A DNA stretch of 64,000 nucleotides from Gluconacetobacter tumulisoli (GTDB taxonomy: Bacteria; Pseudomonadota; Alphaproteobacteria; Acetobacterales; Acetobacteraceae), in assembly GCF_014174155.1 (NCBI RefSeq), contig NZ_JABEQM010000002.1:310001-374000 (forward strand), written 5' to 3'. Every line of letters starts with the position of its first letter. Positions within the stretch are counted from its first letter, which is position 1. The position numbers were made by a program, and so were the translations under genes. The notes beneath the pieces are model-generated. The model was given only the letters and a program-made list of their open reading frames with translations, made no database searches and was not told the DNA's origin. This document shows, one piece after another, positions 9,097 through 45,888 of this stretch.

Positions 9097-9350
9097 CGCG
9101 TCCGGCCGTCCCGCCGCCCGGCGCGATGCGGCCCATGGTCGGGCGCGGCCGGCGCCGGCATCCGCCCGCCGCCCCGCGACAGGGGCGGCGCGCACCCCCG
9201 CGCGCCATCGTCCAGCACCGCGCCGGTGCGCGCGCGGTCCGGGCTCTCCCGCCCGCCATTCACCCGCGCCAGGGGCTGGATGCCGAAATCCGCCGCCTCG
9301 TCGGGAACCCGCCCGGTCTCGGCCATCTGCTTGTGCTGGCGAATCGCCAT
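9093..9350 (-). CDS. small phage protein between the terminase genes
   Basis: 85 residues, starting MAIRQHKQMAETGRVPDEAA with GGAAG a few bases upstream of the ATG. The first 35 residues look like a normal soluble protein; the rest is rich in Arg, Gly, Pro and Asp. It lies just after the small terminase gene and its stop overlaps the next start by 4 bases. Coupling and a good ribosome binding site support it; no family was recognised. Confidence 0.5.
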   Translation of the reverse strand: MAIRQHKQMAETGRVPDEAADFGIQPLARVNGGRESPDRARTGAVLDDGARGCAPPLSRGGGRMPAPAAPDHGPHRAGRRDGRTR

Positions 9351-9395
9351 GCTTCCATCCCCATTCTTGAAAACCGCATGCCGGATCTGGCGCGT

Positions 9396-9908: not shown

Positions 9909-9965
9909 CGCCGCACCCCCTCCGAACTCTCCCGTCAAGGACAGAATATCTCCCGAACATATCAA

Positions 9966-10304
9966 TGGATATCCTTATTCCGTCCCGACGGGACGCGAAC
10001 GGACGTCCCATGGTGGCTATGGTGGGTCCGGAGGGTCCCCCTCCCCCGGTACCGGAAAAACGTCACCGCCACTTCCCACGTACCGGCCCCGCCCGCCCCA
10101 CCAGACCCACCGAACCCACCGATGGAGCGCCGCGTCACCCGGGTGTCTGCCTCAGGGCGCTGCCCTGAAACCCGCCAAAGGCCACCGGCCTCTGGAAACC
10201 ATTTTGTTCATACTATCTTTTGCAAAGAGGACCGCGCGGCCTCCAACGATCGGGGTCCAGGGCCTCAGGCCCTGGCAGGTTCGGGCAGCGCCCGATCTTC
10301 TCAC
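9966..10304. repeat. intergenic gap with GGGC-palindrome repeat, copy D
   Basis: No gene is supported between the primase and terminase genes. From about 10150 to 10295 lies a full repeat unit in the order TCAGGGCgctGCCCTGA, a CCAAAGG...CCTCTGG hairpin, CAGGGCCTCAGGCCCTG and TTCGGGCagcGCCCGA. It has the same order and orientation as copies A and C, which implies one mobile or duplicated unit rather than chance terminators. The gap also separates early (replication) from late (packaging) phage genes, where a terminator would be sensible. Confidence 0.75.
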
Positions 10305-12869: not shown

Positions 12870-13010
12870 GTCACGGTCCTCCCGGGCCCCGCCCGAACCC
12901 GCAAGGGGCCACATCCCCTCCGACCCCGATCTGTTTCAACGACTGGTTTCCAAGGGCGACCGCCTCTGGCGGGGCGCGGGGCGGCGCCCCGCAGACCGAC
13001 GCACCGCCGC
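12870..13010. repeat. GGGC-palindrome intergenic repeat, copy E (degenerate)
   Basis: Lies between the small regulatory gene and the primase gene. It carries diverged modules in the opposite orientation to copies A, C and D, including CCGACCCCGAT, TTTCCAAGGGCGACCGCC and the hairpin GGGCGGCGCCC. No gene is supported. Confidence 0.55.
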
Positions 13011-19296: not shown

Positions 19297-20496
19297 TTGC
19301 ACCAGATACACGCCCCCCGCGCGCCGCTCGTCCTCCTGGGCCTGGCGGTCGCCCTCCTGCCCGCCGCCGCACGGGCCGCCTCCGACGCCGCGCGGTGCGC
19401 CGGCCGGCCGGTCACCAGTTTCGTCGGCTCGGTCATCGGCGGGTACCAGCTGTCGCAGCCCTGGCGCTTCCCCAACCTGCTGGCCACCGGCAATATCGGC
19501 CTCTACCAGGTCGACGGCACGACCCGCCGGCTGCTGGACTGGCCCGACGGCAACCGGGCCTGGATCAGGCCCCCCGGCTATGACGGCCAGGCCGTCATGA
19601 AGGCGATGATCGCCCTGTGGCAGGGCCGGGCCGGCGGCGGCATGTTCGAAGGCGGGAATTCCCCGGCCCTGACCCCCAACGTGCCGCCCTCCCATTACCA
19701 TGTCTCGGACGACAGCCAGTCCGGCGCCCAGTTCCGCTGGTTCGCCGACGGATGGCATCCGCAGGTCGCGATGCTGAATCTCAGCTACGCCGACACCGCC
19801 CCGCCCTTTGGCGGCAGCTATCATAACCCGTCGTCGGAATTCACCGACCGCGACGTCGCCGACACCGCCACCGCCCTGCGCGACGCGCGGATGACGACCG
19901 GCGCGGCGCTGGTGCTGCCTTACATCTCCAACGGGTCGCGCGGCCATCTCTCCGACAGTTCGGACACCGACCGCCACGGAAATCCGGGCCTGGGCACCCG
20001 GGTGCAGAGCGATTACGCCACCGATCCCTACTACGCCAATTCCCGACGCATCGCGCTGCTGGCCGGCGGATTCGGCATCGACACGCCGGCCAACATCTTT
20101 TCGACGGACGCCTATTACGGCCCGGGACACAGCGAGATGTTCCGCCGCCTGATCGCCAGCGAAATCCGCTGGGCCAACCGCCATCACCTGACGACCGCCG
20201 TGTTCATGACCATCTTCGACACGCAGCACGGCATGCGCGGCAACGGCCCCGACTTCCGGTTCCTGCGCGGCGTGCAGACCGAAGTCCGCTATCTGGAAAA
20301 CGCCGACGCCCGCCCGACCTACTGGATCGTCGGGCAATATTCCAACGGCCCGGCCACCACCAACATGCCCGAAACCGACACCACGCCCGAAAGCATCACG
20401 CAGGTCGCGAACTGGGTGGCCCGCAACGCCCATACCACCCCGCCCCCCGTTCCGGCCGCCACATGCTCCCCCCCGCCCGCCGGCCCGAACGGCTGA
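19297..20496 (+). CDS. exported protein of unknown function
   Basis: 399 residues if the TTG at 19297 is the start; AGCAGGA lies upstream. A signal peptide is clear: APLVLLGLAVALLPAAARAA, with likely cleavage after ARA-A near residue 27. The mature protein has many aromatic and acidic positions (QFRWFADGWHPQVAMLNLSY, AALVLPYISNGSRG, ASEIRWANRHHL), in a pattern that could be a TIM barrel of a glycoside hydrolase, but I recognise no family. The last 30 residues are Pro-rich. Its place among glycosyltransferases suggests work on a surface or exported glycan; that is inference. Confidence 0.6.
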   Translation: MHQIHAPRAPLVLLGLAVALLPAAARAASDAARCAGRPVTSFVGSVIGGYQLSQPWRFPNLLATGNIGLYQVDGTTRRLLDWPDGNRAWIRPPGYDGQAVMKAMIALWQGRAGGGMFEGGNSPALTPNVPPSHYHVSDDSQSGAQFRWFADGWHPQVAMLNLSYADTAPPFGGSYHNPSSEFTDRDVADTATALRDARMTTGAALVLPYISNGSRGHLSDSSDTDRHGNPGLGTRVQSDYATDPYYANSRRIALLAGGFGIDTPANIFSTDAYYGPGHSEMFRRLIASEIRWANRHHLTTAVFMTIFDTQHGMRGNGPDFRFLRGVQTEVRYLENADARPTYWIVGQYSNGPATTNMPETDTTPESITQVANWVARNAHTTPPPVPAATCSPPPAGPNG

Positions 20497-20560
20497 ACCA
20501 GCCCCGACCGCCCGAACACCCGAACTCTCGAACGCCGCACACCCCTCCGAGGCCCGCCCG

Positions 20561-21961
20561 ATGCAAACCGGATATGTCATTGTCGCCCACACGGGGTCGC
20601 TGATCGCCGTGGATCCCGAAGGCATGTTCCATATCATCCCCGGCTTCCTGCACCAGGATGGCCGCCCCCTGCTGCGCTGCGACGCGGCGCTGCGCCCCTG
20701 CGTCGCGCGGGACGGCGCGCTGGTCCCGATCGACGGCCTGGCCTGCTCCGACCCCCAATGGACCGACGGCGCCGCGCGGATCGGCCTGCGCCGGGGCGAC
20801 CGCTACGGATCGGTCCATCCCAACGGCACCGAAATCGAATTCGACCGCGACACGCAGCAGGGATGGGAATATTTCCTGCTGCTGCCCGAGGCCGACCTGC
20901 CGGCCATCGCCCGCTTCGCCGAACGCGCCTGGCTGGTCCCCGACGCGGGCCAGGTCGTCACGCCGGCCCGCGCGACCGCGCTGTGCGCGATCCACGCCGG
21001 AAAATCCGAGTATCGGATCGACGAGAACATCCAGGCCCTCCGCGCCCTTCCCCCCGACGCGACCGACGTCGTCCTGACCCGCAGGACGTACTGCATCGGG
21101 CGGTTCGTCGCCTATCGTCCCCTCGTCTATTACGCCTGCTTCGGCGCGGACGCGCAGTTCGCGCTGCTGCGGGCCAGCCTGGACGCGCTGCTCGCCGTCG
21201 GGCGGTACGACGGCGACCTGTGCATCATCACCGACCGCGACGACCTGCGCGACTGGATTCCCGAACGCTTCGCCGGAACGCTGCACATCCTGCGCAAGAC
21301 CCCGACCCGGCACGAGGAATTCTGGCGGTCGCGCTACGAGATCGCGGACCTGGAGGGCATCGGCGCATACGGCCCGATCCTGTATGTCGACACCGACGTC
21401 TGCGCGGTCGCGGACATCTCGATCATCCTCCACCGCATAGCCCTCAGCGGAAAGATCTGCGTCGGGACCGAGGAATATCCGGCCAGCATCACCAATCCCC
21501 CGTCCCTGCTGACGGTCGCCGATTCGATGGGCGGCACACTGTTCCGCATGGACGGGCACGACCCGGGCTACCGGTTCGGCTTCAATTCCGGCATCATCGG
21601 CTTCGCATCGATGCGGATCGCGCGCGACCCGTTCCGCCGGGTGGCCGGGACGATGGACCGCCTGCTGCGGGCGGGAACATGGATCCCGTTCATGGACCAG
21701 GCGGTCGCCAACTACCTGTTCCACAAGCTGGGCATCGTCGATACCGAAACCCTGTCCGGCCATGTGCAGGCCGGCACGCCGACCCGCCTGTATTCGCATG
21801 TCCGCCCGGCCGACACCCAGGTCCTGGTCCATTTCTGGGCCACCCCGGGCAAGGACCGCGAAACGATCCTGCGCGCCATGACCGCCACCCGCCTGGCCGA
21901 ACGCGCCGCCCGCGAGGCCGGCCGCATCCGCCAGCACGTGACGCTGCCGCCATCGCCCTAG
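20561..21961 (+). CDS. GT8-like nucleotide-sugar glycosyltransferase
   Basis: 466 residues starting MQTGYVIVAHTGSLIAVDPE. The N-terminal 170 residues resemble a beta-rich lectin- or fascin-like domain. The C-terminal half is a GT-A domain: VYYACFGADAQFALLRASLD, LCIITDRDDL, then GPILYVDTDVCAV, which carries the D-T-D metal motif, followed by FGFNSGIIGF and HVQAGTPTRLYSHV. This order matches GT8/LgtC-type transferases. It lies 65 bp after the exported protein gene in the same direction, so the two may be co-transcribed. Substrate unknown. Confidence 0.75.
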   Translation: MQTGYVIVAHTGSLIAVDPEGMFHIIPGFLHQDGRPLLRCDAALRPCVARDGALVPIDGLACSDPQWTDGAARIGLRRGDRYGSVHPNGTEIEFDRDTQQGWEYFLLLPEADLPAIARFAERAWLVPDAGQVVTPARATALCAIHAGKSEYRIDENIQALRALPPDATDVVLTRRTYCIGRFVAYRPLVYYACFGADAQFALLRASLDALLAVGRYDGDLCIITDRDDLRDWIPERFAGTLHILRKTPTRHEEFWRSRYEIADLEGIGAYGPILYVDTDVCAVADISIILHRIALSGKICVGTEEYPASITNPPSLLTVADSMGGTLFRMDGHDPGYRFGFNSGIIGFASMRIARDPFRRVAGTMDRLLRAGTWIPFMDQAVANYLFHKLGIVDTETLSGHVQAGTPTRLYSHVRPADTQVLVHFWATPGKDRETILRAMTATRLAERAAREAGRIRQHVTLPPSP

Positions 21962-21983
21962 CCCGATCCGTCATTCCCCCCCG

Positions 21984-23339
21984 TCATTCCGCCTCCGGGA
22001 CGGCCATGTCCCCCAGGCCCGTCCGCCCCCGCGCGGCCAGCGTGCGCCATCCGCCATAGACCACGCCCCAGGCCAGCCAGCTTCCGCCGACGATCAGCGC
22101 GGTACGGTTCAGATGCGCCCAGACGAAGGCGCAGATCGCAAATCCCGCCAGCGGCGTCAGCACGAAGCCCGGCGACCGCCGCCGCTGCCGGATCGCATAG
22201 GCCGCGAACGCCGCCGCGTTCACGCCCATGAAGGCCACGAACGCCCCGAAATTCAGCGCCTGCGCCCCGATCTCGAACGCATCGCCGCCCAGCCGCCCGG
22301 CAAAGGCCTCCATCATCTCGGCGCCGGCCACCGTCACGGCGCCCACGGCCAGGATGTTGTTGCGCGGAATCCGATGCACCGGGTCCAGCGTGCCGAAGAA
22401 CCGGCGCGGCAACGCCCCCGCCCGCCCCATGCTGTACAGCAGCCGCCCGGCGGCCAGCTGCGACCCCAGGCCCGAACCCACCGTCGCCACCAGCAGCGCC
22501 ACGTTGATCATCTGGAACAGCGCCACCCCGCCCAGCCGGCCCGCCACCATCGCGAAGGCCGATTCCACGTTGCCCGCCGGAAAGGGCGCGCTGCCCCACA
22601 CCAGCTGCGCCGCATAGACCTCCAGCCCCGACAGCAGTCCGGTCGTCAGGCAGACCAGCATGATCGCCCGCATGACGGCGCGCCGCGGGTCGCGCGCCTC
22701 CTCCGACAGGGTCGAAACCGCGTCGAAACCGATATAGGTCAGCACCGCCACCGACGCCCCCGCCAGGACGCGGTCGGGGCGAAAGCTGGCCGGGTCGTGG
22801 AACGGCCGCCAGAAGAACGCCGCGTCATGCCCCGCGCCGGCCACCCGGTGCCAGACGAAGGCCAGGAACACCACCACCACCAGCAGCAGCACGCCGCACA
22901 TCGCCCCGCTCAGCCGCGCCGACGTCTGCACCCCCCGCAGGTTCAGCAGCGTGAACAGGCCGACGAACGCCGGCACCCAGGCGTAATAGGGCACGCCGGG
23001 CACGATATTCGTCATCGCCTTGGCGCAGAACGCCGTGCAGACCAGGGGATTGAGCAGATAATCCAGCAGCAGCGCCCAGCCCACCACGAAGCCCAGCGCC
23101 GGGTGGATCTCCTGCCGGACATAGACATAGGCCGACCCCGCGCTGGGATACAGCCGCGCCATGCGGCCGTAGCTGACGGCGGTGAACAGCATGGCCGCCA
23201 TCGCGATCAGGATCGCGGTCACGACATGCCCGTGCGCGGTATTGCTGATGACCCCGTAGATCCCCATGGGCGCGGTCGGCTGCACGATCACCATGCCGAT
23301 CAGCACCAGTTGCCACAGGCTCAGGCTGCGGTTCAGCAT
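21984..23339 (-). CDS. APC-family amino acid permease
   Basis: 451 residues from the ATG at 23339, preceded by GGGAGGGG; the longer frame upstream is not needed. It has about 12 hydrophobic segments and the APC signature GIYGVISNTAHGHVVTAIL, then YPSAGSAYVYVRQEIHPALG in the early transmembrane part, with TYIGFDAVSTLSEEARDPRR in the middle, a hallmark of this family. It imports an amino acid across the inner membrane. It is the last gene of the SDR/PLP-enzyme/RidA/TonB unit and gives the inner-membrane step for the same substrate. Substrate not deducible from sequence. Confidence 0.85.
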   Translation of the reverse strand: MLNRSLSLWQLVLIGMVIVQPTAPMGIYGVISNTAHGHVVTAILIAMAAMLFTAVSYGRMARLYPSAGSAYVYVRQEIHPALGFVVGWALLLDYLLNPLVCTAFCAKAMTNIVPGVPYYAWVPAFVGLFTLLNLRGVQTSARLSGAMCGVLLLVVVVFLAFVWHRVAGAGHDAAFFWRPFHDPASFRPDRVLAGASVAVLTYIGFDAVSTLSEEARDPRRAVMRAIMLVCLTTGLLSGLEVYAAQLVWGSAPFPAGNVESAFAMVAGRLGGVALFQMINVALLVATVGSGLGSQLAAGRLLYSMGRAGALPRRFFGTLDPVHRIPRNNILAVGAVTVAGAEMMEAFAGRLGGDAFEIGAQALNFGAFVAFMGVNAAAFAAYAIRQRRRSPGFVLTPLAGFAICAFVWAHLNRTALIVGGSWLAWGVVYGGWRTLAARGRTGLGDMAVPEAE

Positions 23340-23456
23340 CGCCCCTCCCTCCCCTGCGCCGGACACCGTGCCCGACATGTGACGATCCGGCATGCTGTCT
23401 CCCCTCCCCTGCCCGCGATCCGCGCCGCACCCTGCGGCGCGCGACCGGACGATGCC

Positions 23457-25973
23457 TCAGAACGCGCTGGACATCGAAACGAACGCCGCGAACGGCGCCC
23501 CGGTCAGATAGATCGGCGCGCTCCCCGCCACGACGGCACCGTGCATGCCCACCATCGTATGCGCGTTCCCCGTCGTGCTGCCCGCGGCGGCCAGGTAATG
23601 GACGTCGCCGATATTGATCAGGTTCAGCTGGATCTGCGGATGCCTCGCCGGCCCGATCGAGCGGAAACGATAGCCCAGCGTCAGGTCCGACGTCGTATAG
23701 GACGGAATGCTCTCGTCATTCATGAAGGTCGTGTACTGGCTGTCCACATACCGCAGGTTGAAATTGCCGAAGACCGTGCCGTTGTCGTACTGCAGCCCGA
23801 TCGCCCCGGTGAATTTCGGACTCCCGACCGAGATCTTGCCCTTGGTCGGCAGGATGTCCGCGCCGGCATCGAAATTGTTGTCCATCGTCGAATGCAGGTA
23901 CTGCCCAGACAGGTACGGGCTGAAATGATGCCAGTACCCCAGCCCGAATTCCGCCTGCACGCCGCGCGACGTCTCGCCCCCGGCATTGATCGGCTCCGCC
24001 ACCGGGCTGGTCGACCCGGGGATGTAGCCCGAGGACGAGATATTGTGGTTCGTCAGGTTCAGGTTGAACAGCGAGATCGAGAAATTATAGAATCCCGTGT
24101 GCCGGTATCCGATTTCCTCGCCGATCGAATATTCCGGCTTCAACGAACCCGCCTTGGCGATCTGCCCGGAATTGGGGTCGTAGTCCGGCGTATAGGCCTC
24201 GACCGACACGGGCGCGCGGAACGCCGTCGTGCCGTTGATGAACACCTGGTCGTGGCGGTCGATCTGGTAGCTGGCATAGAATTGCGGCAACGGCTCGAAA
24301 TAGCTGCCGGTCGCCTTCCACGGGCTCGCCCCCGGCAGGTTGTTGGTGCCGCTCCGATACATCATCGCCGCCTTGAACCCGCCGCCGATCTGTAATTTGT
24401 CATGCAGAAGCTTGATATTGTCCGAAACGTACAATGCGTTGACCTGCTGCCAGAAATTCAGGTTGTCGCCGCTCAGGATCTGCCCGTTCGACAGCCGCAC
24501 CGGGTTCAGCCCATAGCCCGTCACCGGGTTTCCCGCATAGTTCACCAGGTCGTACTGGTACCGCTCGGTATGCGCGGCATAGGAATACCACCAGCCGAAC
24601 GTCAGCGTGTTGTTGCCATGGGTCCAGCGCAGGGTCGAATTCAGGCCGCTGTTCTTCTGGTTCCACGGATCGTTCAGCAGCGCGGTCAGATAGCCGTTGG
24701 TCGCATAAGGCTGCGTCAGCGCCCCGTACTGCGACCCGGGGGTGCCATACGTCGCCGCCCCGAAATAGCCGCCCGACACCGGAATGTTCTCGCCGCCCAC
24801 CTGCGGGCCGTACTCGTGCACGTAATAGGGCGTCAGGTTCAGCTGCAGTTCCTTCGTCAGCGTAAACTGCATCGGCGCCACGATATTGACGACATTCGAA
24901 TTGACTTGCGAAAACTTGTAGTAATTCACATCCCCCGGCGTATAGGTCGCATCCAGATTGTAATGATCGCCCATCTGACGCCACTGCTGCAGGGTCGGGT
25001 TCAACATCGCATTGATGCTCTGCCGGTTGAACCCCAGGATAAAGCGAATGCTGTTGCCCTGCCCCCATTCCTTCACGAACTTCGAATCCACATGATACCG
25101 GAACTGATCCCCCGGCCCCCGCCAGTTATTGGCCGAAGTATAGGAAAAGGACACAAACCCCCGCACCCCGCTATTGCCAATATCACCAGTCTCGAAACGC
25201 GCGAATTCCTTGTTGCCGCTATGGGTCCCCCCCATCACGTCCACATACCCGCCCATCCGGTGCGACGGATTGATCTCGAAGGTCGAAATCTGTCCTCCCA
25301 CCGCATTCAGCAACGGCCCGTCCAGGTCCGGCGAACCCTGCGACACAGTCACCGAACCGATATTCTCGTTATCCACCAACGTCGGCGAAAACGTGACGTA
25401 ACTCAGCGGATCCGCCTCCGGCGCGCCTTCGAACAGAAAACCGATCTGCGACTGCGTCAGGCCGCGCATCGTCATGGTGTCGTTGGGAAACATCCCCAGC
25501 GGATCAATCTTGGCCGATACCACGCCCGGCAGGCTGGCCACCAGATTGTCGATCGAGGTCGTGGGCGCCTGCTTGGCGATATAATCCCGCGTCATGCCGC
25601 TCTGCGAACGCGGGGCGCGTTCCACGGGCATAAGCCCGCCGCCAGGCGTGGTATTGGTCACGCCATTGCCGCCCGACATCCCACCGGTCACCGACACGGT
25701 TTCGGTCTGGCCGGAATCCGGCAGGATGGACATGCCCATCAGTGTGCCCGATGCCGCGGTACCCACCGTCCGCCCGCTACCCACTGCTGCCCCCGTGGGC
25801 GGTACGGACGGCGTGGACACCGCCGCGGGGGTAGCCGCCGCACGCACGGCCGCGGCCTGCCCGGCCGCACGCCGATGCGACGTCGACTGCGCCAGGGTCG
25901 GCCCGGGCAGGGCCAGCCCGACCGAGATCATGATACTGGTCGCCCGAAAATTATTCCTGAGAGTCATATTCAT
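23457..25973 (-). CDS. TonB-dependent outer-membrane receptor
   Basis: 838 residues starting MNMTLRNNFRATSIMISVGL with a signal peptide cleaved near LAQS. A TonB-box region and plug follow: VASLPGVVSAKIDPLGMFPN, TMTMRGLTQSQIGFLFEGAP and a segment with VTVSQGSPDLDGPLL. The rest is a 22-strand barrel type sequence with many aromatic-alternating segments, ending in Phe (MSSAF) as required for barrel assembly. It should import a ligand through the outer membrane with TonB energy. It sits between the RidA and permease genes of a minus-strand operon, so its ligand may be an amino-acid derivative or peptide rather than a siderophore. Confidence 0.85.
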   Translation of the reverse strand: MNMTLRNNFRATSIMISVGLALPGPTLAQSTSHRRAAGQAAAVRAAATPAAVSTPSVPPTGAAVGSGRTVGTAASGTLMGMSILPDSGQTETVSVTGGMSGGNGVTNTTPGGGLMPVERAPRSQSGMTRDYIAKQAPTTSIDNLVASLPGVVSAKIDPLGMFPNDTMTMRGLTQSQIGFLFEGAPEADPLSYVTFSPTLVDNENIGSVTVSQGSPDLDGPLLNAVGGQISTFEINPSHRMGGYVDVMGGTHSGNKEFARFETGDIGNSGVRGFVSFSYTSANNWRGPGDQFRYHVDSKFVKEWGQGNSIRFILGFNRQSINAMLNPTLQQWRQMGDHYNLDATYTPGDVNYYKFSQVNSNVVNIVAPMQFTLTKELQLNLTPYYVHEYGPQVGGENIPVSGGYFGAATYGTPGSQYGALTQPYATNGYLTALLNDPWNQKNSGLNSTLRWTHGNNTLTFGWWYSYAAHTERYQYDLVNYAGNPVTGYGLNPVRLSNGQILSGDNLNFWQQVNALYVSDNIKLLHDKLQIGGGFKAAMMYRSGTNNLPGASPWKATGSYFEPLPQFYASYQIDRHDQVFINGTTAFRAPVSVEAYTPDYDPNSGQIAKAGSLKPEYSIGEEIGYRHTGFYNFSISLFNLNLTNHNISSSGYIPGSTSPVAEPINAGGETSRGVQAEFGLGYWHHFSPYLSGQYLHSTMDNNFDAGADILPTKGKISVGSPKFTGAIGLQYDNGTVFGNFNLRYVDSQYTTFMNDESIPSYTTSDLTLGYRFRSIGPARHPQIQLNLINIGDVHYLAAAGSTTGNAHTMVGMHGAVVAGSAPIYLTGAPFAAFVSMSSAF

Positions 25974-26185
25974 GTCAGATGCCTTCCGAAAACAACTTTC
26001 AAGACAACGGACTTCCCGATCATGCGGTTGGAGCGCATTTCACGTGGTTCAGAACGGTTTCCATATCTTCCCGACAGCCGGATTTACCGGATGTCGAAAA
26101 TCGATGGCGTTTTTCTTCTTCTATTCAGCTCATTTACCCAGGCACGCGACCTGCGGCATCCGTGTGACATAACGGATCGCACGCG

Positions 26186-26584
26186 TCACGCCTTCCTGCG
26201 GTCCGCGCGAAATGCCACGCAATCGACCTCGACCTTGCAATCCAGCATCATGCTGGACCGAACGCAGGCGCGCGCCGGCGCCGCATCGCCGAATATCTCG
26301 CGGAACACCCGGTTGAACAGCCAGAAATCACGCGGGTCGTCCAGCCACACCCCCACCCGCACCACATCGTCCCAGCCATAGCCCGCCGTGGTCAGGATGC
26401 GGGCGATATTCGCGAAACATTGTTGGGATTCGGCGACGATTCCACCAGGAACGATCCCGCCATCTGCGGCACCCACTTGTCCGGACACGTGCAGCCACCC
26501 GTCGGCCTCCACCGCGTCGGAAAAGGGCAGCGACAGGCTGCCAGCCGGCACGGCGTCGGAGCGGTAACGAATCAGATCACTCAT
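26186..26584 (-). CDS. RidA-family enamine/imine deaminase
   Basis: 132 residues starting MSDLIRYRSDAVPAGSLSLP. The fold and key residues of the Rid family are visible: DGWLHVSGQVG at 28-38, the active-site Arg in PARACVRS (Arg105) and the acidic partner in CKVEVDCVAF (Glu119). Rid proteins hydrolyse reactive enamine/imine products released by PLP-dependent dehydratases. It lies 66 bp after the gene for such an enzyme, which makes a clean-up role in the same pathway likely. Usual full length for the family. Confidence 0.85.
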   Translation of the reverse strand: MSDLIRYRSDAVPAGSLSLPFSDAVEADGWLHVSGQVGAADGGIVPGGIVAESQQCFANIARILTTAGYGWDDVVRVGVWLDDPRDFWLFNRVFREIFGDAAPARACVRSSMMLDCKVEVDCVAFRADRRKA

Positions 26585-26650
26585 AAACGGTTCTCTCCGA
26601 TACGACAGGGTTCGTGCCCCGTCGGACTGTGGGCGGATGCGCGGGGCGCT

Positions 26651-27925
26651 CTACCCGAACTCGGTCTGATAGGCGGCGGTGACCACGCCGTCCGCGTCGA
26701 GCGCGAACAGGATTCGCCACCGATCCAGGCAGGTGCATGGATGGGCAATGCCGAATTCCACGCAATCCCCCACCTGCAGACCGTCTGCTGCCGACCCGCA
26801 CAGGAAGGCGTGCTGGTCGTTCAACTTCGTCACCATGGCATACGACGGATCGAAATCCGCCACCGGCCCGCCATCGCGATATGCCGCCAGCGGGCGCGGT
26901 AGCCCGGCGTCGTTTGATGCATCGCGCAACCCGAATCCGCAGATCGCCACACCCTCTTCCGGCCGGGACAGGACTTCTGCCCACAGCCGCAATGCCGGGC
27001 GCAGCGCGGCGAGATCGGGAAAGATCTGTCCCGGCAGTTGTGCCTTGCGTGCGGCCACCGCGTGCAAGGCCTGCTCGTACGGTCCGTGGTCCTGGAAGAA
27101 TGCCGCGCCGCTGCGCAGGATCAGCGTTGCGTTGCCGTCTGCTGCGGCTATGGGGGCGAGTTGGGCCAGTACCTGGTCGTAGTAGACTGATCCGCCGGCT
27201 GTCAGCGTGAGGGGAATGTCTGGTTCGGCGCGGCGTATGCGGGTGAACATTTTTGCTGTCAGCGACAGAAGTGTCGTGATGCGTGATATTGTATCCGCCG
27301 GTCCGTCGCCGCTGATCGTTCCTTCGTAGGTGCCGACGCCGGCGAGGCGTAGCCATTGTCCCTCGGCCAGGATGGCGGCCATCACGGCGTCGCCCTGGGC
27401 CAGCGTGCGGGCGCCGGCCCGGGCGGCGCCCATCTCGACCAGTACCGGCAGATGCCGTCGTCCCGCCATGCGCGCCGCGGCGGCCAGGCTGCGAACGATG
27501 GCCGGGGAATCAGCGAAGAACAGGATCTGCGCGTCGGGATACGCGCGCAGCACCCGCGCCAGGTGGCGCGCCGCGGACGGGCCGCCGAGTTCGTTGGCGA
27601 AGATCAGCCGGTCGATGCCCGCGCGCAGCATGACCAGCGCCTGCCGCAGGTTGGCGACGGTCATGCCCCATGCGCCCCCGGCCATCAGCATCGCGGCCAG
27701 TTCCGGGATCATCGGCGTCTTGGCGTGGGGGGCGATCGCCACGCCGGCCTGGCGCGCGAAGGCCAGCATCGCGGCCGCGTTTCCGGCGAAGGCCGGCAGG
27801 TCCAGCGTCAGGACGGGCAGGGTCATGTCGCCGGACGCGGGCCGCCACCCCTGGGCGGGCACGTCCTGCAGCGCGAGGGTGCCGCTGCCCGGCGGGACCC
27901 CGCGCACGGTCTCGTCGAGCGTCAT
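26651..27925 (-). CDS. D-serine dehydratase-like fold-III PLP enzyme
   Basis: 424 residues from the ATG at 27925, overlapping the SDR stop by 4 bases. The N-terminal domain is of the alanine racemase type; IAPHAKTPM puts the PLP lysine at Lys69. The later AGVGTYEGTIS and LTAGGSVYY fit the DSD1/D-threonine aldolase family. Near the C-terminus the metal motif reads HPC (His395, Cys397); known D-serine dehydratases of this fold use His-x-Cys with zinc, whereas D-threonine aldolases use His-x-Asp. This favours dehydration of D-serine or a D-3-hydroxy amino acid, giving an enamine for RidA. Substrate not proven. Confidence 0.75.
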   Translation of the reverse strand: MTLDETVRGVPPGSGTLALQDVPAQGWRPASGDMTLPVLTLDLPAFAGNAAAMLAFARQAGVAIAPHAKTPMIPELAAMLMAGGAWGMTVANLRQALVMLRAGIDRLIFANELGGPSAARHLARVLRAYPDAQILFFADSPAIVRSLAAAARMAGRRHLPVLVEMGAARAGARTLAQGDAVMAAILAEGQWLRLAGVGTYEGTISGDGPADTISRITTLLSLTAKMFTRIRRAEPDIPLTLTAGGSVYYDQVLAQLAPIAAADGNATLILRSGAAFFQDHGPYEQALHAVAARKAQLPGQIFPDLAALRPALRLWAEVLSRPEEGVAICGFGLRDASNDAGLPRPLAAYRDGGPVADFDPSYAMVTKLNDQHAFLCGSAADGLQVGDCVEFGIAHPCTCLDRWRILFALDADGVVTAAYQTEFG

Positions 27926-28683
27926 GGCTTGGCCTCGCACACGGTCTGGCCGCCGTCGACGACGATGGTCGTGCCGCTGACATAGGCCGCGTCGTCCGAT
28001 GCCAGGAAGAGGCATGCCCCGGCGATGTCGTCGGGCGTGCCCAGCCGGCCCAGCGGCACCGACCGTTCCATGCCGGCAATGAAGTCCGCCGAGCGCGTGC
28101 GCTGCATGGCGTCCGTCAGGATGTTGCCCGGCTCGACCCCGTTGACGGTGATGCCGTAGGGCGCCAGTTCCATGCATGCCCCGCGGATCAGCCCGACGAT
28201 GCCGGCCTTGCTGGCGCCGTAATGGCCGTGCCCGGCGCTGCTGACCCGCGGCCCCGTCACCGACGACATAAAGATGATGCGCCCGGCCTGCTGGCGCTTC
28301 ATAATCGGCAGGCACGCCTTCAGCGACAGGAAGCAACCCTTGAGATTGACGGACAGGACCTGGTCCCATTCCTGCTCGGACGTGTCTTCCAGCAATGTCC
28401 ATGGAAAGATGCCGGCATTCTGGACCAGGATGTCGACACGCCCGAAGCGTTCGACCGTTTCGCGAACCAGCCGTTCGGTCGCCTCGCGGCTGGACACGTC
28501 CGTCCGCACGACATGAACGGCCCCGGGCACGCCCAGCCGTGCGGCCAGCGCCTGGGCCGGGGCCTCGTCCCAGTCGCCGATCACCACCGACGCGCCTTCG
28601 CGCACGAAGCGCGTCACGATCGCCGCGCCAATTCCCTGCGCACCGCCGATCACGATCGCCGTCTTGCCTGCCAGTCGTCCCAT
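27922..28683 (-). CDS. short-chain dehydrogenase/reductase, first gene of catabolic operon
   Basis: 253 residues from the ATG at 28683, with GAGGA just upstream. The Rossmann motif is GGAQGIGAAI at 13-22, NAG at 89-91, catalytic Ser140/141, and the Tyr155-x3-Lys159 pair in GHYGASKAG. It ends VDGGQTVCEAKP. It should oxidise or reduce an alcohol/ketone with NAD(P). Being first in an operon with a D-amino acid enzyme suggests it prepares the substrate or handles a product, for instance a 3-hydroxy group; that is inference. It overlaps the next gene by 4 bases. Confidence 0.85.
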   Translation of the reverse strand: MGRLAGKTAIVIGGAQGIGAAIVTRFVREGASVVIGDWDEAPAQALAARLGVPGAVHVVRTDVSSREATERLVRETVERFGRVDILVQNAGIFPWTLLEDTSEQEWDQVLSVNLKGCFLSLKACLPIMKRQQAGRIIFMSSVTGPRVSSAGHGHYGASKAGIVGLIRGACMELAPYGITVNGVEPGNILTDAMQRTRSADFIAGMERSVPLGRLGTPDDIAGACLFLASDDAAYVSGTTIVVDGGQTVCEAKP

Positions 28684-28800
28684 CGCATCCTCACACGCCG
28701 CCCGGATACCGCCGCGCCCGTCGCGCGCCGGCTGCCCGGGCGGAGTAACGGCGCGCCACCAGGGCGGCGCGCCGCACTCCAACAAGGGGTTCCGTTGCCC

Positions 28801-28850
28801 TTGACAATTGTCCTATATACTGGACATATATCCCGTATATCGGACAACCG
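28801..28850. promoter_or_regulatory. divergent promoter/operator with inverted repeats (IclR site candidate)
   Basis: An 11-base inverted repeat with one mismatch, TTGTCCTATAT (28808-28818) against ATATCGGACAA (28837-28847), plus an inner TGTCC-n8-GGACA pair (28809-28826). A TTGACA at 28801 lies at the left. The 217-bp gap between the operon and the IclR gene is AT-rich compared with its surroundings. This is the expected place for IclR binding; promoter strengths on each strand cannot be assigned by eye. Confidence 0.6.
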
Positions 28851-28900
28851 GATAGTAGGCATACCGTCCAATTCGCTGCAAGAACAAAATCGGGAAGAGA

Positions 28901-29677
28901 ATGATGGGTGGTGGAAATGAAGGTGGGCGCATGCGTGGCGTCGACCGCGTGCTGCAATTGCTGGAGGTGCTGCATACGGCGCGCGAGCCGTTGCGCATCG
29001 GGGAGCTGGCGCGGCGGCTGAACGCCCCGCGATCGACCACCTACGACCTGGTCAACACGCTGCTCGCGGCCGGGATCCTGGAAACCTACGAGGAGGAATC
29101 ACGCGTCTTCTTCGGCCGCACGCTGCATTTCTATGCGTCGGATTACATGAACGGCCATCGCCTCAGCCGCCTTGCCCGCAAGGAGGTGCAGGACCTGTGC
29201 GCCGGCACGGGGCAGACCAGCCAGTATTGCGCGCTGACCCGCGACAAGTTCACCGTGCTGCACATGGAAACCGGCAACGCGATGTTCAAGATCAGTTCCG
29301 ATATCGGCATCGCCCTGCCCCTGCCGTGGACGGCGTCGGGCCGGCTGCTGGTCGACCACATGACCGCCGATGAAATCCTGGCTTTCGTACCCGAGGAGGA
29401 TTTCATCCTGCCCAATGGCCACCGCATCGACCGCGCGACCTTCTGCGCGGAAGTCGCCGCCGCGCGGCGGGACGATTTTTTCTCGACCAAGGGGCTGGTC
29501 GACGATTTCGCCGAATGCCTGGCGGTTCCGGTGCGCGACGCCGCCGGCGTCGCGGTGGGGTGCATGTGCCTGATCACCGTCCGCGACCGCGATCCCGACG
29601 AACGCGGCCGCTATCTGGACCAGCTTCATGCCAGCGGCGAACGGCTGAGCCGCGCGCTGTCGATCAAGGCGGGGTGA
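28901..29677 (+). CDS. IclR-family transcriptional regulator
   Basis: 258 residues if the ATG at 28901 is used; the ATG at 28931 with AAGGTGGG upstream is an alternative that starts directly at the domain. The winged helix is VDRVLQLLEVLHTAREPLRI then GELARRLNAPRSTTYDLVNT at 15-55; the effector domain includes LPLPWTASGRLLVDHM and CLAVPVRDAAGVAVGCMCLI. It is transcribed away from the D-amino acid catabolic operon and probably controls it through the inverted repeat in between. Whether it represses or activates is not visible. Confidence 0.85.
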   Translation: MMGGGNEGGRMRGVDRVLQLLEVLHTAREPLRIGELARRLNAPRSTTYDLVNTLLAAGILETYEEESRVFFGRTLHFYASDYMNGHRLSRLARKEVQDLCAGTGQTSQYCALTRDKFTVLHMETGNAMFKISSDIGIALPLPWTASGRLLVDHMTADEILAFVPEEDFILPNGHRIDRATFCAEVAAARRDDFFSTKGLVDDFAECLAVPVRDAAGVAVGCMCLITVRDRDPDERGRYLDQLHASGERLSRALSIKAG

Positions 29678-29698
29678 GCCCCGGGCCCGGCGGGCGGA

Positions 29699-31498
29699 TC
29701 AGGCGCCGTAGCGTTCCAGCAGTTCGTCCCAGCCCGCCCTGACATGGGGCGCGTAGGGCGCGTCCCGGACCACGTCGCGGCTTTGCCGGACCAGGTCGCG
29801 GATGCGGTCGCGGAACAGGGCGCGGGCATCGGCTTCGGCGGCGCGGATGTCGGGGATGGCGCGCAGGCGCGCCATCTCGGCCTCCAGCGCCGGAAGGAAC
29901 GGCAGCAGCCGCGTTTCGGGCAACGCCTGGTCGGAATCGAAGAACCGGACGAAGGCGTCCAGGAAGCGCGCGGTGAACTGGCGCGTCGGCCGCGGGTCGC
30001 TGTTCCCGCCGCGGGGGCGGCTGCTTTTCCAGACGAATTCCTCGAACGATTTGTAAAAATGATGCGCGATCCAGGCGTTTTCCTCCGACAGCCTGCCGAC
30101 GGCCACGCTGGGCGATGCCTCGGTATGCAGCAGGGCCCCTGACGCGTCGAGCGTGCGGAACGACCGCTGCGCCGCCCAGTGCGGGTTGTGGGCGTGCGCG
30201 AAGGGCGACAGGCGGGTCTGCGTCGCGGATTTCACCAGGGCGTTTTCCGGCGGTTCGCGCCGCTGGAACCGGGCCGTCATCGGGGCGTCGTCGTGATGCA
30301 GCAGGCCGCCGGGCGTCATCATCACCCATGAAAACGCCACCGCGTCGGCGCCCCGGGCCTCCTGCAGGTCCAGGAACGGGCCGATATGGGTATAGCGGTC
30401 GGGATCGAGCGCCAGCATTTCGTCCAGGTCGATCACCAGCGTCCATCTGTAATCGAGCATCTGCGGCACCGCCGACAGGGCGGCGGCGTAGGCCTTGCGC
30501 TGGATCCGCGTGGCGGACTGGGGGTTGGTGTCGATCCAGGTGATCAGGCCGTGGCGCGCCAGGGCCGCCAGCAGCGCGTCGGACCCGTCCACATTGTTGT
30601 TCGAGCAGATGAAGATATGGTCGAAGCCGATCATCCGGTGCCAGGCGACCCATTCCAGCAGGTAGATCGCCTCGTCCCGCGCCGTGGCCAGGACGCAGGC
30701 GCGCCGGCGCGGCGCGACCAGCCGCCGCGCCTGGCCCAGCAGGGCGAAGCCCAGCGGCGGGGGCCCATGTTCGCCGTAGTCGGCGCGGCCGAGGAAATCG
30801 GTGTCGCCATCCAGCCGCCGGTGCGCCAGCGGGCGGCGGTGGGCGCGCCACGACACGAGGTCGGGCAGGACGGCGCGGATCCAGTAATCGTCGGGCACGG
30901 CCCGGCGCAGGCGCGCCAGCATCGCGGGTTCGTTCAGGACGATGCCGGCGAAGCGTTCCATTTCGTCGCGCGGCAGCAGGCGCAGGAACGCCACCAGGGC
31001 CCTGGCCTGCACGCCGGCCGCCGCCGCGCGGCACCAGCCCCGCAGCGCCATCGCGCCCATCCCGCCGGACACGACCGCGTGGATCGCCGCCGCCAGCGCG
31101 GCGTCCGGCCCGGCCGTGCCGGCGGGGGGCGGTTCGATCGCGAACTGTTCCCACCCGCCGAGGCGCGGCCGGTCGCAGCGTGCCGGCGCGTTCTGGTCGG
31201 GCGGCAGGGCGCAGACATAATGTTCCCACATCGGATGGCGCAGCCCGACCCGGCCCTGCCCCGCCGGCACCAGGCGGTAGGACAGCAGCGCGCGCGGCAG
31301 GGCGTCGTCCGCGTCGCAGGCCAGGGCGGGCGCCGCGCCCGCCGCCATCAGGAACCCCAGGTCCGGCCGTGCCGGATGGCGGACCAGCAGCACCGGCACC
31401 ATGCCGGGCGCGGTATGAAGCCGCCCGGTCGCGGGATCGGCGGCAAGCAGGCCCCCATGCGCGTCCTTGAGCACATGGACCAGAAGAGTATCGACCAT
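29699..31498 (-). CDS. glycosyltransferase of the GT2_4/GT92-like type
   Basis: 599 residues from the ATG at 31498 (MVDTLLVHVLKDAHGGLLAA). The N-terminal 260 residues are a separate domain with no family I recognise. The catalytic domain begins VLATARDEAIYLLEWVAWHR (about 285-305), then HIFICSNNNVDGSDALLAAL and WTLVIDLDEMLALD, whose D-L-D is the metal site. This is the arrangement of Glyco_tranf_2_4 enzymes. The end (HHFYKSFEEFVWKSSRPRGG) is also family-like. It is convergent with the IclR gene. It may modify a surface polysaccharide like the 16-22 kb cluster. Confidence 0.75.
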   Translation of the reverse strand: MVDTLLVHVLKDAHGGLLAADPATGRLHTAPGMVPVLLVRHPARPDLGFLMAAGAAPALACDADDALPRALLSYRLVPAGQGRVGLRHPMWEHYVCALPPDQNAPARCDRPRLGGWEQFAIEPPPAGTAGPDAALAAAIHAVVSGGMGAMALRGWCRAAAAGVQARALVAFLRLLPRDEMERFAGIVLNEPAMLARLRRAVPDDYWIRAVLPDLVSWRAHRRPLAHRRLDGDTDFLGRADYGEHGPPPLGFALLGQARRLVAPRRRACVLATARDEAIYLLEWVAWHRMIGFDHIFICSNNNVDGSDALLAALARHGLITWIDTNPQSATRIQRKAYAAALSAVPQMLDYRWTLVIDLDEMLALDPDRYTHIGPFLDLQEARGADAVAFSWVMMTPGGLLHHDDAPMTARFQRREPPENALVKSATQTRLSPFAHAHNPHWAAQRSFRTLDASGALLHTEASPSVAVGRLSEENAWIAHHFYKSFEEFVWKSSRPRGGNSDPRPTRQFTARFLDAFVRFFDSDQALPETRLLPFLPALEAEMARLRAIPDIRAAEADARALFRDRIRDLVRQSRDVVRDAPYAPHVRAGWDELLERYGA

Positions 31499-31699
31499 CG
31501 GGCATCCCGGGACGTGACAGATGCGGCCCAATGGGGGGGATCTTTATGAAGGTTCGGTTAGAGCCCGCGTGGAAATCGGGCCGGCCGGCGATGCGGGGCG
31601 CGTTTCCTGCGCCGCGCGAGGGGCAGTCGCGTTCCGGGCAGGCTGGTGGACGGGGCGGCGATCTGCTACCGGACTGGTTCCATTCGTTGCGGGGTCGCC

Positions 31700-32605
31700 A
31701 TGGTTCGCGTTTCGGATCGTGATCGTGAGCGTGATCGTCGGCATGGCGTCGCCCTTGTCGCCCTGTCCGCCGTGCTGTGGAGCACGGCCGGGCTGTTCGT
31801 CCGGATGGCGGCCCTCGATTCCTGGACCATCGTGGCGTGGCGTTCGCTGTTCACCGTCCTGACGCTCGGCGCGATCGCGGTGGTCCGGCACCGCGTCACG
31901 CCGGCGCGGCGGGTGATCCGCCTGGGCTGGACCGAGCTGACGGCCATCGCGCTGTCGGTCGTTTCGTCGATCAGCTATATCGTCGCGCTGGATATCACGA
32001 CGGTGGCGAACGTCATGACGGTCTATGCCGCGCTGCCGTTCATCGCGACCGGGATCGCCTTCCTGTGGCTGCACGAGCGTGTCACGAAGCGGTTCCTGGT
32101 CGCCGGGGCGGTGGCCCTGGGGGGCATCGTCCTGATGGCCGGGGCGGCGGCGACCGCGCGCGACCTGCTGGGCATCGGGGCGGCGGTCGTCATGACCGCG
32201 GGCTTCGCGACGCAGCTGGTCCATGCCAAGCGCCATCCGGCGATGGACACCACCGTCATGAGCGCGCTGGCCGCCGCCGGGTGCCTGCTGGTCGCCGCCC
32301 CCCTGGCGCAGCCCACCCTGCCGACGCCGGCGCAGCTTGTGGCCTGCGCGCTGTTCGGGATCGTGACGACCGGGCTGGCCTATGTCCTGGTGCTGGCCGG
32401 CGGGCGACTGATCTCGTCCGGCGAGGCCGGGTTCATTTCCATGCTCGACGTGGTGCTGGGGCCGCTGTGGGTCTGGATCTTCTACGCCGAGCGGCCCGGC
32501 GGCACGGTCCTGGCCGGGGGTGGCATCGTCCTGGCCTCGGTCGCCTGGTATCTTGCCACCCATCGCGGCCCCGAAATCGACGTCGACGCCGCGCAGATCG
32601 TGTGA
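31700..32605 (+). CDS. EamA/DMT-family transporter
   Basis: 301 residues from the ATG at 31700. Ten hydrophobic segments are present in two EamA halves: GVALVALSAVLWSTAGLFVR at the start of the first, and VACALFGIVTTGLAYVLVLA and GEAGFISMLDVVLGPLWVWI in the second. These proteins export or import amino acids, nucleotides and other metabolites through the inner membrane. Nothing in the neighbours fixes a substrate. Confidence 0.8.
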   Translation: MVRVSDRDRERDRRHGVALVALSAVLWSTAGLFVRMAALDSWTIVAWRSLFTVLTLGAIAVVRHRVTPARRVIRLGWTELTAIALSVVSSISYIVALDITTVANVMTVYAALPFIATGIAFLWLHERVTKRFLVAGAVALGGIVLMAGAAATARDLLGIGAAVVMTAGFATQLVHAKRHPAMDTTVMSALAAAGCLLVAAPLAQPTLPTPAQLVACALFGIVTTGLAYVLVLAGGRLISSGEAGFISMLDVVLGPLWVWIFYAERPGGTVLAGGGIVLASVAWYLATHRGPEIDVDAAQIV

Positions 32606-38473: not shown

Positions 38474-38749
38474 GCCCGACTCATCTCGCGACCGCCACTT
38501 ATTCCCCAAAGGGGCGCCGGTCCGCATTGTTATTAAGAATAAGACTTAGTTGCGTTCCTAGCCACATTCAGAAGTCGCATCAACCGACGAGCTTGCCGTT
38601 GGCCCGAACACCAGCAAATTTTGCCTGATCGCCAACGCCCGATCGCTGAGATAGGGCTTCTGGGCACGCTGTCGGCGGGCGGGGCAGTTATTGCCCAATA
38701 AGAAGGGGGGCTATGGGCCGGAAAGAGGCGCCGCGTGAGGCGCTCCTGG

Positions 38750-45750: not shown

Positions 45751-45888
45751 TGACGGGACCGCCGGGAGATAGGCCATGACTTCCGCGTCGCAGGGACCGG
45801 GCGCGAATCCTTCCCCCGAACGTCCCGGGACTTTTGCCCCGTCGATCTGGCGATATTTGATCTGCCCATGCCATCAGGAACGAGAGAT

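What the first reader, a model, noticed from the sequence alone, without database searches (positions are those of the whole stretch)
21984..28683. Uptake-and-breakdown operon for a D-hydroxy amino acid or derivative
SDR, a fold-III PLP enzyme with a His-x-Cys metal motif (as in D-serine dehydratase), RidA, a TonB receptor and an APC permease lie in one direction under an IclR gene. The chemistry fits: dehydration gives an enamine, RidA hydrolyses it. A TonB receptor dedicated to such a substrate would be new, and suggests a bulky or scarce form such as a D-serine-containing peptide or conjugate.
Basis: partly seen in the sequence, partly recalled or inferred. Interest (0 to 1): 0.65.

Follow-up and report, generated by a model that had tools for sequence, protein, structure and literature searches.

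The report
Amino-sugar-acid uptake and breakdown operon
A row of genes that probably takes up an oxidised amino sugar, which is chemically also a D-amino acid, and breaks it down by a route resembling one described in 2022 in chitin-eating sea bacteria, but with a different regulator, receptor and helper enzyme.

Summary
In detail: SDR, fold-III PLP enzyme (His-Pro-Cys metal motif), RidA, TonB receptor and APC permease lie head to tail beside a divergent IclR gene. The chemistry (dehydration to an enamine, RidA hydrolysis) is well supported as inference. The substrate guess needs changing. The receptor belongs to an Acetobacteraceae clade whose genes sit near N-acetylglucosamine genes (13 of 13 relatives at 54% identity or more; 2 of 20 more distant paralogs). 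The IclR gene and its operator are shared with rhizobial operons (sugar-type ABC transporter, PLP enzyme, RidA, N-deacylase): a palindrome learned from 19 rhizobial regions has its two best hits of the 64 kb window side by side in the SDR-IclR gap. Among 129 related loci scanned, the closest SDRs lie directly before a PLP gene and beside a gluconolactonase. Best reading: a 2-amino-2-deoxy-aldonate such as D-glucosaminate, which is a D-3-hydroxy amino acid, is converted to 2-keto-3-deoxy-gluconate and ammonia. That reaction was shown for OngC of the ong pathway (Jiang 2022), whose cluster also has a TonB receptor, so the pairing is not new. The enzyme lies outside the clade with ong-like clusters: a new variant of a known kind. 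No activity was measured; plain D-amino acids remain possible.

The parts
28901..29677 (+). IclR-family regulator, divergent; 39-46% identical to the regulator of rhizobial sugar-ABC/PLP/RidA operons
28808..28827 (.). Predicted IclR operator 1 (TTGTCCTATATACTGGACAT)
   Evidence: best hit in the 64 kb window (27.2 bits) to a palindrome learned from 19 rhizobial regions without the window; null maximum 16.8
28828..28847 (.). Predicted IclR operator 2 (ATATCCCGTATATCGGACAA)
   Evidence: second-best hit in the window (20.3 bits), adjacent to operator 1
27922..28683 (-). SDR oxidoreductase; proposed hexosamine (aldose) 1-dehydrogenase; overlaps the PLP gene start (ATGA)
   Evidence: 46% to SDRs next to PLP and gluconolactonase genes in L058 and L144; role inferred
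26651..27925 (-). Fold-III PLP enzyme, D-ser_dehydrat domain, His-Pro-Cys metal motif; proposed D-hexosaminate dehydratase/deaminase
   Evidence: substrate inferred
26186..26584 (-). RidA-family enamine/imine deaminase
   Evidence: 46% to the RidA of the ong-type locus L195 and 63% to RidA of L075
23457..25973 (-). TonB-dependent receptor of the Acetobacteraceae clade that neighbours GlcNAc genes
21984..23393 (-). APC amino-acid permease (start 23393, or a downstream ATG near 23339); proposed inner-membrane importer of the amino acid-like substrate
   Evidence: role inferred from position

Best explanation
An IclR-controlled operon for uptake and breakdown of a 2-amino-2-deoxy-aldonic acid (amino-sugar acid), most likely D-glucosaminate or D-galactosaminate, or oligosaccharides that yield it. 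The receptor brings the amino-sugar compound across the outer membrane. The APC permease carries the amino acid-like monomer across the inner membrane. The SDR oxidises any unoxidised hexosamine at C1, with a lactonase encoded elsewhere. The PLP enzyme eliminates the metal-bound 3-OH, giving a 2-amino-enolate, which RidA hydrolyses to ammonia and 2-keto-3-deoxy-gluconate (or -galactonate) for a kinase/aldolase route. IclR binds tandem palindromes between the divergent genes and is released by the substrate or a product. Shown: gene order, families, motif, receptor clade, conserved operator. Inferred: every substrate, transport direction, the SDR role, the regulator's sign and ligand, and co-transcription of the last two genes.
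For: Receptor: of the 13 other places at 54% or more, 11 were fetched and 11 of 11 have GH20, NagB or NagA genes in the locus; the 2 not fetched have NagB next to the receptor. 2 of 20 paralogs at 42-51% do; Fisher p 9e-7 for 11/11 against 2/20. They form one clade with the window (98/97). Kozakia baliensis is annotated nagA, nagB, GH20 and ROK beside it. Regulator: the palindrome learned without the window puts its two top hits in the SDR-IclR gap. The 32 of 80 named loci with IclR all have the sugar-type binding protein and RidA, and mostly Amidohydro_2, AstE/AspA deacylase and F7. F7 is also in a nag locus (L060) and in the locus of the own genome's 73% receptor paralog (L059); its model is glycosidase-like. 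SDR: 46% to SDRs directly before PLP and beside an SGL gluconolactonase in L058 and L144. Precedent: OngC turns GlcN1A into KDG and ammonia, ongD (RidA) deletion abolished growth on GlcNAc1A, OngOT-1/2 are TonB receptors (PMC9537276, passages). Acetic acid bacteria oxidise glucosamine to glucosaminic acid (PMC9171043, passage); the genome has 3 loci over the PQQ membrane dehydrogenase cut-off, a DgoK-aldolase pair and a second KDPG/KHG-type aldolase.
Against: The PLP enzyme is 32% identical to the L195 ong-type enzyme and lies outside the clade with KdgK-linked loci. Its closest named relatives (Azospirillum 55-59%, Chelatococcus 55-56%) sit with a polar amino acid ABC transporter and LacI where looked at, as do 43 of 80 named loci. 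The window's RidA is not the rhizobial operon type (matches 1 of 80 named loci, against 71 for the rhizobial query; no hit in R. etli L192); its best plasmid DNA match is a RidA gene beside a polar amino acid ABC transporter and an IclR gene. No OngB-like deacetylase (best 33%, partial); no clear KDG kinase (best hit reads as ribokinase). 0 of 80 named loci hold the receptor or the APC. NagA and NagB exist elsewhere in the genome. The SDR family is broad: the window SDR passes a FabG subfamily cut-off as well. A shared operator does not prove a shared ligand.
Confidence: 0.55

Rival explanations
1. Operon for a small D-3-hydroxy amino acid (D-serine, D-threonine, D-threo-3-hydroxyaspartate or D-phenylserine) or its N-acyl or peptide form; the PLP enzyme is a D-serine/D-threonine dehydratase, RidA clears the enamine, the SDR handles a side product, APC is the importer.
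For: Family name, fold and metal motif fit. APC family permease. 43 of 80 named relatives lie with a polar amino acid ABC transporter and 75 of 80 with an AstE/AspA deacylase. The window RidA's best plasmid DNA match lies beside a polar amino acid ABC transporter. OngC itself takes D-Ser and D-Thr.
Against: The receptor clade is tied to GlcNAc genes. The operator-sharing relatives have sugar-type (Peripla_BP_4) transporters, Amidohydro_2 and a glycosidase-like protein. Free D-serine would not need a TonB receptor (established knowledge: small solutes cross porins).
Confidence: 0.25
2. Two units side by side: an IclR-SDR-PLP-RidA unit for some D-hydroxy amino acid, and an independently transcribed duplicate of the GlcNAc-type receptor with an APC permease that merely landed downstream.
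For: 212-bp gap before the receptor and a 10-of-12 promoter-like match at its start; no operator-like site near the receptor start; 0 of 80 named PLP loci have the receptor; the genome has at least 6 such receptors, one 73-74% identical.
Against: Same strand, no terminator-like site in the gap; the ong cluster and Novosphingobium L196 also put a TonB receptor with a deaminase and RidA.
Confidence: 0.15
3. The PLP enzyme is an aldolase or racemase (D-threonine aldolase or BhcC type).
For: VIA-align ties D-threonine aldolase, BhcC and 3gwq at Z 37-38, above the dehydratases at Z 32-34; NCBIfam's only hit is BhcC.
Against: BhcC scores 70 against a cut-off of 690 bits. Metal ligands are His-x-Cys, as in the dehydratase, not His-x-Asp as in the aldolase (PMC4401734, passage; alignments). 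Both histidines of the aldolase stretch that could be its base align with Glu and Gly here.
Confidence: 0.05

Closest known systems
ong cluster, oxidative chitin pathway of Pseudoalteromonas prydzensis (Jiang et al. 2022, PMC9537276, passages read)
   Same: Fold-III PLP deaminase, RidA and TonB receptor in one cluster; amino-sugar acid as (here likely) substrate
   Different: RpiR not IclR; no deacetylase, KDG kinase, SSS transporter or GH20 in the operon; APC permease and SDR added; PLP enzyme 32% identical to that of the ong-type locus L195 and in another clade than KdgK-linked loci; no tblastn hit of the receptor in L195
Rhizobial IclR operon (Rhizobium etli CFN 42 p42c, RHE_RS23695-RS23740; L192)
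   Same: IclR 43%, the same operator family in this group, PLP enzyme 50%, a RidA gene
   Different: Sugar ABC transporter, amidohydrolase, AstE/AspA deacylase and F7 instead of SDR, TonB receptor and APC; its RidA is of another type
Azospirillum/Chelatococcus PLP operon (L189, L190, L191)
   Same: Closest named PLP enzymes (55-59%), a RidA gene
   Different: Polar amino acid ABC transporter, AstE/AspA deacylase, LacI regulator; operator not found in the 3 loci scanned
GlcNAc (nag) loci of Acetobacteraceae, e.g. Kozakia baliensis pKB14400_3
   Same: Receptor clade (58% identity)
   Different: NagA, NagB, ROK and GH20 genes; no PLP-enzyme match at 1e-40 in that genome
D-serine dehydratase (3anu), D-threo-3-hydroxyaspartate dehydratase (3wqc), putative D-serine deaminase 3gwq
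   Same: Fold, PLP Lys; His-x-Cys metal site as reported for the dehydratase
   Different: 19-32% identity in the structural alignments
Predicted GlcNAc pathway of Natrarchaeobius (PMC12343721, passages)
   Same: Glucose 1-dehydrogenase oxidising glucosamine to glucosaminate, with IclR and RutC-family genes in the cluster
   Different: Archaeal; [quoted passage not shown] itself a prediction

Membership tests
Metal-dependent fold-III D-hydroxy-amino-acid dehydratase (D-serine dehydratase type) | Alanine-racemase-like barrel plus D-ser_dehydrat domain | tested here: met
   Pfam both domains over cut-off; model pLDDT 88, Z 32-38 to the group
Metal-dependent fold-III D-hydroxy-amino-acid dehydratase (D-serine dehydratase type) | His-x-Cys metal ligands rather than His-x-Asp | tested here: met
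   His-Pro-Cys, invariant in 19 and 32 rows; meaning from PMC4401734 (passage)
Metal-dependent fold-III D-hydroxy-amino-acid dehydratase (D-serine dehydratase type) | Ammonia plus keto acid from a D-3-hydroxy amino acid | not testable with these tools
   no enzyme assay
D-threonine aldolase / BhcC | His-x-Asp metal site and catalytic His | tested here: not met
   His-x-Cys; candidate His positions are Glu and Gly; BhcC 70 bits against 690
ong cluster (oxidative chitin pathway) | PLP enzyme in the OngC clade | tested here: not met
   clade of 34 (96/93) apart from the clade of 21 (96/84) that holds the 4 KdgK/DgoK-linked loci; [quoted passage not shown] 32% to the L195 enzyme
ong cluster (oxidative chitin pathway) | GlcNAc1A deacetylase OngB, KDG kinase and GH20 in the cluster | tested here: not met
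   none among the 10 proteins of 19297-32605 scanned with Pfam; own genome best OngB hit 33%, partial
ong cluster (oxidative chitin pathway) | RidA in the cluster | tested here: met
   46% to RidA of L195
ong cluster (oxidative chitin pathway) | TonB receptor related to OngOT-1 | tested here: inconclusive
   no tblastn hit at 1e-5 in the 25.2 kb locus L195; OngOT-1 of strain ACAM 620 was not available
Acetobacteraceae receptor clade with GlcNAc neighbours | Falls inside the clade | tested here: met
   12-row clade 98/97
Acetobacteraceae receptor clade with GlcNAc neighbours | GlcNAc genes beside the receptor itself | tested here: not met
   window locus has none; its 73% paralog L059 has GH20, HGSNAT_cat and F7
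IclR regulon of rhizobial sugar-ABC/PLP operons | Same operator between regulator and operon | tested here: met
   two top hits in 64 kb, 27.2 and 20.3 bits, null maximum 16.8
Siderophore receptor | Siderophore-receptor model over its cut-off | tested here: not met
   only a weak FoxA hit, 29 against 1300 bits
Siderophore receptor | Iron-regulated operator | tested here: inconclusive
   no match to a recalled enterobacterial Fur consensus with up to 3 mismatches; boxes of other iron regulators of Alphaproteobacteria were not tested

The most novel reading that the evidence does not exclude
An acetic acid bacterium carries a dedicated salvage operon for hexosaminates, the acids that such bacteria themselves make from hexosamines (or that oxidative chitin cleavage releases), with a duplicated GlcNAc-type receptor recruited to it and a non-phosphorylative chain of SDR, lactonase, PLP dehydratase and RidA; the same IclR/operator regulon in rhizobia would be an undescribed branch of amino-sugar-acid catabolism in Alphaproteobacteria.
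Probability: 0.3. Interest if true: 0.6.

Novelty: new variant of a known kind. Interest (0 to 1): 0.42.

Why it matters
It would move a large set of genes towards a testable function in amino-sugar-acid breakdown: relatives deposited as 'alanine racemase' or 'amino acid deaminase' in Rhizobium, Azospirillum, Chelatococcus and Aminobacter, and relatives in Bradyrhizobium and Mesorhizobium. It would also give acetic acid bacteria a possible way to recover the amino-sugar acids that they make. The shared operator makes it directly testable: one inducer should work on both regulators.

Tried and rejected
D-serine peptide as substrate: kept as a rival, not excluded. Iron uptake: no match to a recalled enterobacterial Fur consensus (other iron boxes not tested), and the receptor hits no siderophore model over cut-off. 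Replacement of the phosphorylative GlcNAc route: rejected, NagA and NagB are present on another contig. A KdgK-type kinase in the genome: not found; the best hit is ribokinase-like and itself under that model's cut-off. A first operator scan was circular, because its sites had been picked with a consensus taken from the window; I discarded it and repeated it de novo without the window. An earlier look for exact shared words gave mostly words absent from the window. Outside the training set the operator was found in 4 of 7 sugar-ABC or PLP-only loci (L123, L133, L128, L193 at 22.8-33.3 bits; not in L136, L138, L148) and in 0 of 3 Azospirillum/Chelatococcus loci; two unrelated loci reach the window's null maximum, L195 (17.1) and the same-genus GlcNAc locus L063 (16.8). 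The genome-contig scan with the single protein found nothing; the alignment scan kept the best 80 of 339. F7 has no PDB sequence match at 0.01. No plasmid match for the APC permease at 1e-60. Papers: the listings of searches showed none on this rhizobial or acetic-acid-bacterial operon, but several lists were capped (for example 25 of 1,440, 40 of 292 and 8 of 1,462), and searches were spoiled by word-start matching of 'glucosaminate'.
Full report
What is there. SDR and PLP genes overlap by ATGA, which argues for translational coupling; PLP-RidA and receptor-APC gaps are short; the RidA-receptor gap is 212 bp, without a terminator-like site. The genome lies in a family whose members include Kozakia baliensis: G022 contig C4 and NZ_CP014677.1 have the same length, 176,991 bases, and the same receptor place, so the family is Acetobacteraceae. 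The species was not identified.

The PLP enzyme. Pfam gives Ala_racemase_N plus D-ser_dehydrat. The closest solved relative is 3gwq, deposited as D-serine deaminase. PLP Lys and His-Pro-Cys are invariant in 19 and 32 aligned sequences. In the paper on D-threonine aldolase (PMC4401734, passages) the dehydratase coordinates the metal by His and Cys and the aldolase by His and Asp, and the aldolase's potential base His193 is absent from the dehydratase; here the two histidines of that stretch align with Glu and Gly. An AlphaFold2 model (pLDDT 88) matches aldolases (Z 34-38) and dehydratases (Z 32-34) of the group, so fold alone does not separate them; the motif does.

Where its relatives live. 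Of 150 genomes of the own family 13 have a homolog at 1e-40, the window's own included, the others at 33-39% identity; the two same-genus genomes examined have none. Of 297 genomes of another alphaproteobacterial family 28 have one at 1e-85, 45-54% identical. Named relatives are Azospirillum (55-59%), Inquilinus (56%), Chelatococcus (55-56%), Achromobacter (53-55%) and many rhizobia. In the tree of 56 rows the window is a deep branch in a clade of 34 (96/93); within it the order is unresolved. Contexts of the best 80 of 339 named loci (up to 8 kb each side, some cut): AstE/AspA deacylase 75, rhizobial-type RidA 71, then two main arrangements, polar amino acid ABC transporter with LacI (43 each) and sugar-type ABC transporter (36) with IclR (32), F7 (34) and Amidohydro_2 (34); an SDR match in 6; TonB receptor 0, APC 0. 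The window's own RidA matches only 1 of the 80; it is closer to RidA of L075 (63%) and of the ong-type locus L195 (46%), and its best plasmid DNA match (78% over 189 bases) is a RidA gene beside a polar amino acid ABC transporter and an IclR gene in Rhizobium sp. CCGE531.

The regulator picks the group. The window IclR is 39-46% identical to the regulator of the sugar-ABC arrangement. A palindromic motif learned from 19 non-redundant of 45 upstream regions, without the window, is aTGTCCAATATATTGGACAt. Scanning all 64 kb, its two best hits are adjacent, at 28808-28827 (27.2 bits) and 28828-28847 (20.3 bits), in the SDR-IclR gap; the best of 100 shuffles is 16.0 and of 30 Markov sequences 16.8. 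Outside the training set it occurs in 4 of 7 loci of the sugar-ABC or PLP-only kind and in none of 3 of the Azospirillum/Chelatococcus kind. The six other own-genome loci scanned (L059, L111, L118, L186, L187, L188) reach 14.5 at most; the rest of the genome was not scanned. Two unrelated loci reach 17.1 (L195) and 16.8 (L063, a GlcNAc locus of a same-genus genome). An earlier scan was circular and is not used. A shared operator suggests, but does not prove, a shared ligand.

The receptor points to amino sugars. Of the 13 other places at 54% identity or more, all have GH20, NagB or NagA genes nearby: 11 fetched and read, 2 by the NagB position. Of 20 paralogs at 42-51%, taken down the list with two skipped, 2 do (L105 and L108, each 4-5 kb off); L112 has a ROK gene only. 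Some reference proteins came from the loci tested, some control loci are shorter, and genomes of one family are not independent. The window and these 11 form one clade, 98/97; a 42% paralog in the same locus as one of them (L066b) falls outside it. The deposited annotation of Kozakia baliensis names nagA, nagB, GH20 and ROK beside it. The window genome's own 73% paralog sits with GH20, a HGSNAT_cat protein and F7.

F7. This protein of about 395 residues has no Pfam family over cut-off. It is found in an acetic-acid-bacterial nag locus (L060), in the locus of the own paralog (L059), in rhizobial PLP operons, and in L073, in one locus with DgoK and a KDPG/KHG-type aldolase. Its model (pLDDT 87) is a glycosidase-like barrel: Cwp19, an alpha-L-fucosidase and the PgaB glycoside-hydrolase domain at Z 23-25, followed by GH42 enzymes at 23; 990 of 999 chains compared had Z 8 or more, so this barrel is common. 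It ties GlcNAc loci to PLP loci independently of the receptor, but no copy was found in the window.

The SDR. In 129 loci scanned (49 and 80) its closest relatives, at 46%, lie directly before the PLP gene in L058 and L144, beside an SGL gluconolactonase. L058 also has an AA_permease_2 gene near the PLP gene, only 24% similar to the window's APC over 120 residues. Both SDRs pass the NCBIfam 'glucose 1-dehydrogenase' subfamily cut-off; the window SDR passes a FabG subfamily cut-off too, and 231 families match it, so the name is loose. Dehydrogenase, lactonase, dehydratase is the order of non-phosphorylative aldose pathways (established knowledge), here with a deaminating dehydratase. Novosphingobium L196 has TonB receptor, SGL, SDR, RidA, PLP enzyme and an HpcH-type aldolase together, but only its PLP enzyme is close (36%); the SDR is 24% and receptor and RidA gave no hit.

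Why hexosaminates. D-glucosaminate and D-galactosaminate are (2R) 3-hydroxy amino acids with the D-threo arrangement of D-threonine (own knowledge), so a D-serine-dehydratase-like enzyme is a fitting catalyst. This is shown for OngC of Pseudoalteromonas prydzensis: GlcN1A to KDG and ammonia, with D-serine and D-threonine also accepted; deletion of ongD (RidA) abolished growth on GlcNAc1A, and OngOT-1/2 are TonB receptors for oxidised chito-oligosaccharides (PMC9537276, passages). Cupriavidus papers annotate a glucosaminate deaminase or hydrolase with KDG kinase, without naming its family in the passages (PMC2842291, PMC3734047). A predicted haloarchaeal pathway oxidises glucosamine with glucose 1-dehydrogenase in a cluster with IclR and RutC-family genes (PMC12343721, passages). 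Acetic acid bacteria oxidise glucosamine, mannosamine and galactosamine to the acids (PMC9171043, passage), and this genome has three loci over the PQQ membrane dehydrogenase cut-off.

What does not fit. No OngB-like deacetylase and no clear KDG kinase were found; a DgoK-aldolase pair on contig C4 and a second KDPG/KHG-type aldolase on C6 are present, which would suit D-galactosaminate better. The polar amino acid transporters of the closest relatives, and of the best DNA match of RidA, keep plain D-amino acids open. Co-transcription of receptor and permease is unproven.

Verdict. The operon works like the ong pathway but is not a member: deaminase clade, deacetylase, kinase and GH20 criteria are not met. 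It is a new variant of a known kind, in an alphaproteobacterial branch that I did not find described in the papers searched (searches and their caps under Tried and rejected).

Noticed in passing
L188 (own genome contig C5:121000-138000), 5970-12762: A second cluster in the same genome: BhcC-like fold-III enzyme (198 bits, under cut-off), a DgaE-family PLP ammonia-lyase (324 bits against 385), and by eye RidA, a GntP-like permease, an IclR-like regulator and an MlrC-like protein.
   Followed up: partly
window 43325-44890 (+): D-aminopeptidase (NCBIfam 718 bits against 443; Pfam DAP_B), about 14 kb from the operon.
   Followed up: partly
window 36260-38527 (-): Siderophore-type TonB receptor (TIGR01783 over cut-off), unlike the operon's receptor, which has no such hit.
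   Followed up: partly
window 45868-50310 (+): Two glycosidase genes in a row, trehalose-6-phosphate-hydrolase-like and alpha-glucosidase MalA-like, both under their cut-offs.
   Followed up: no
window 958-12914: Phage genes: 4 of 6 proteins scanned hit PHROGs families (terminase, portal, head, primase); a prophage or remnant about 9 kb from the operon.
   Followed up: partly
L256:10732-11913(-), L060:10938-12128(+), L059:3573-4739(-): F7, a family without a Pfam model over cut-off and with a glycosidase-like barrel, shared by GlcNAc loci and PLP operons; function unknown.
   Followed up: yes
L123:8467-8486: In Paramesorhizobium deserti (the same place as L226) a PLP gene stands without the neighbours sought, yet the IclR palindrome lies 33 bp before its start.
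   Followed up: partly
L203, L209, L210: Achromobacter (Betaproteobacteria) carries PLP enzymes 53-55% identical to the window's, as high as or higher than the rhizobial ones; suggests transfer between classes.
   Followed up: no
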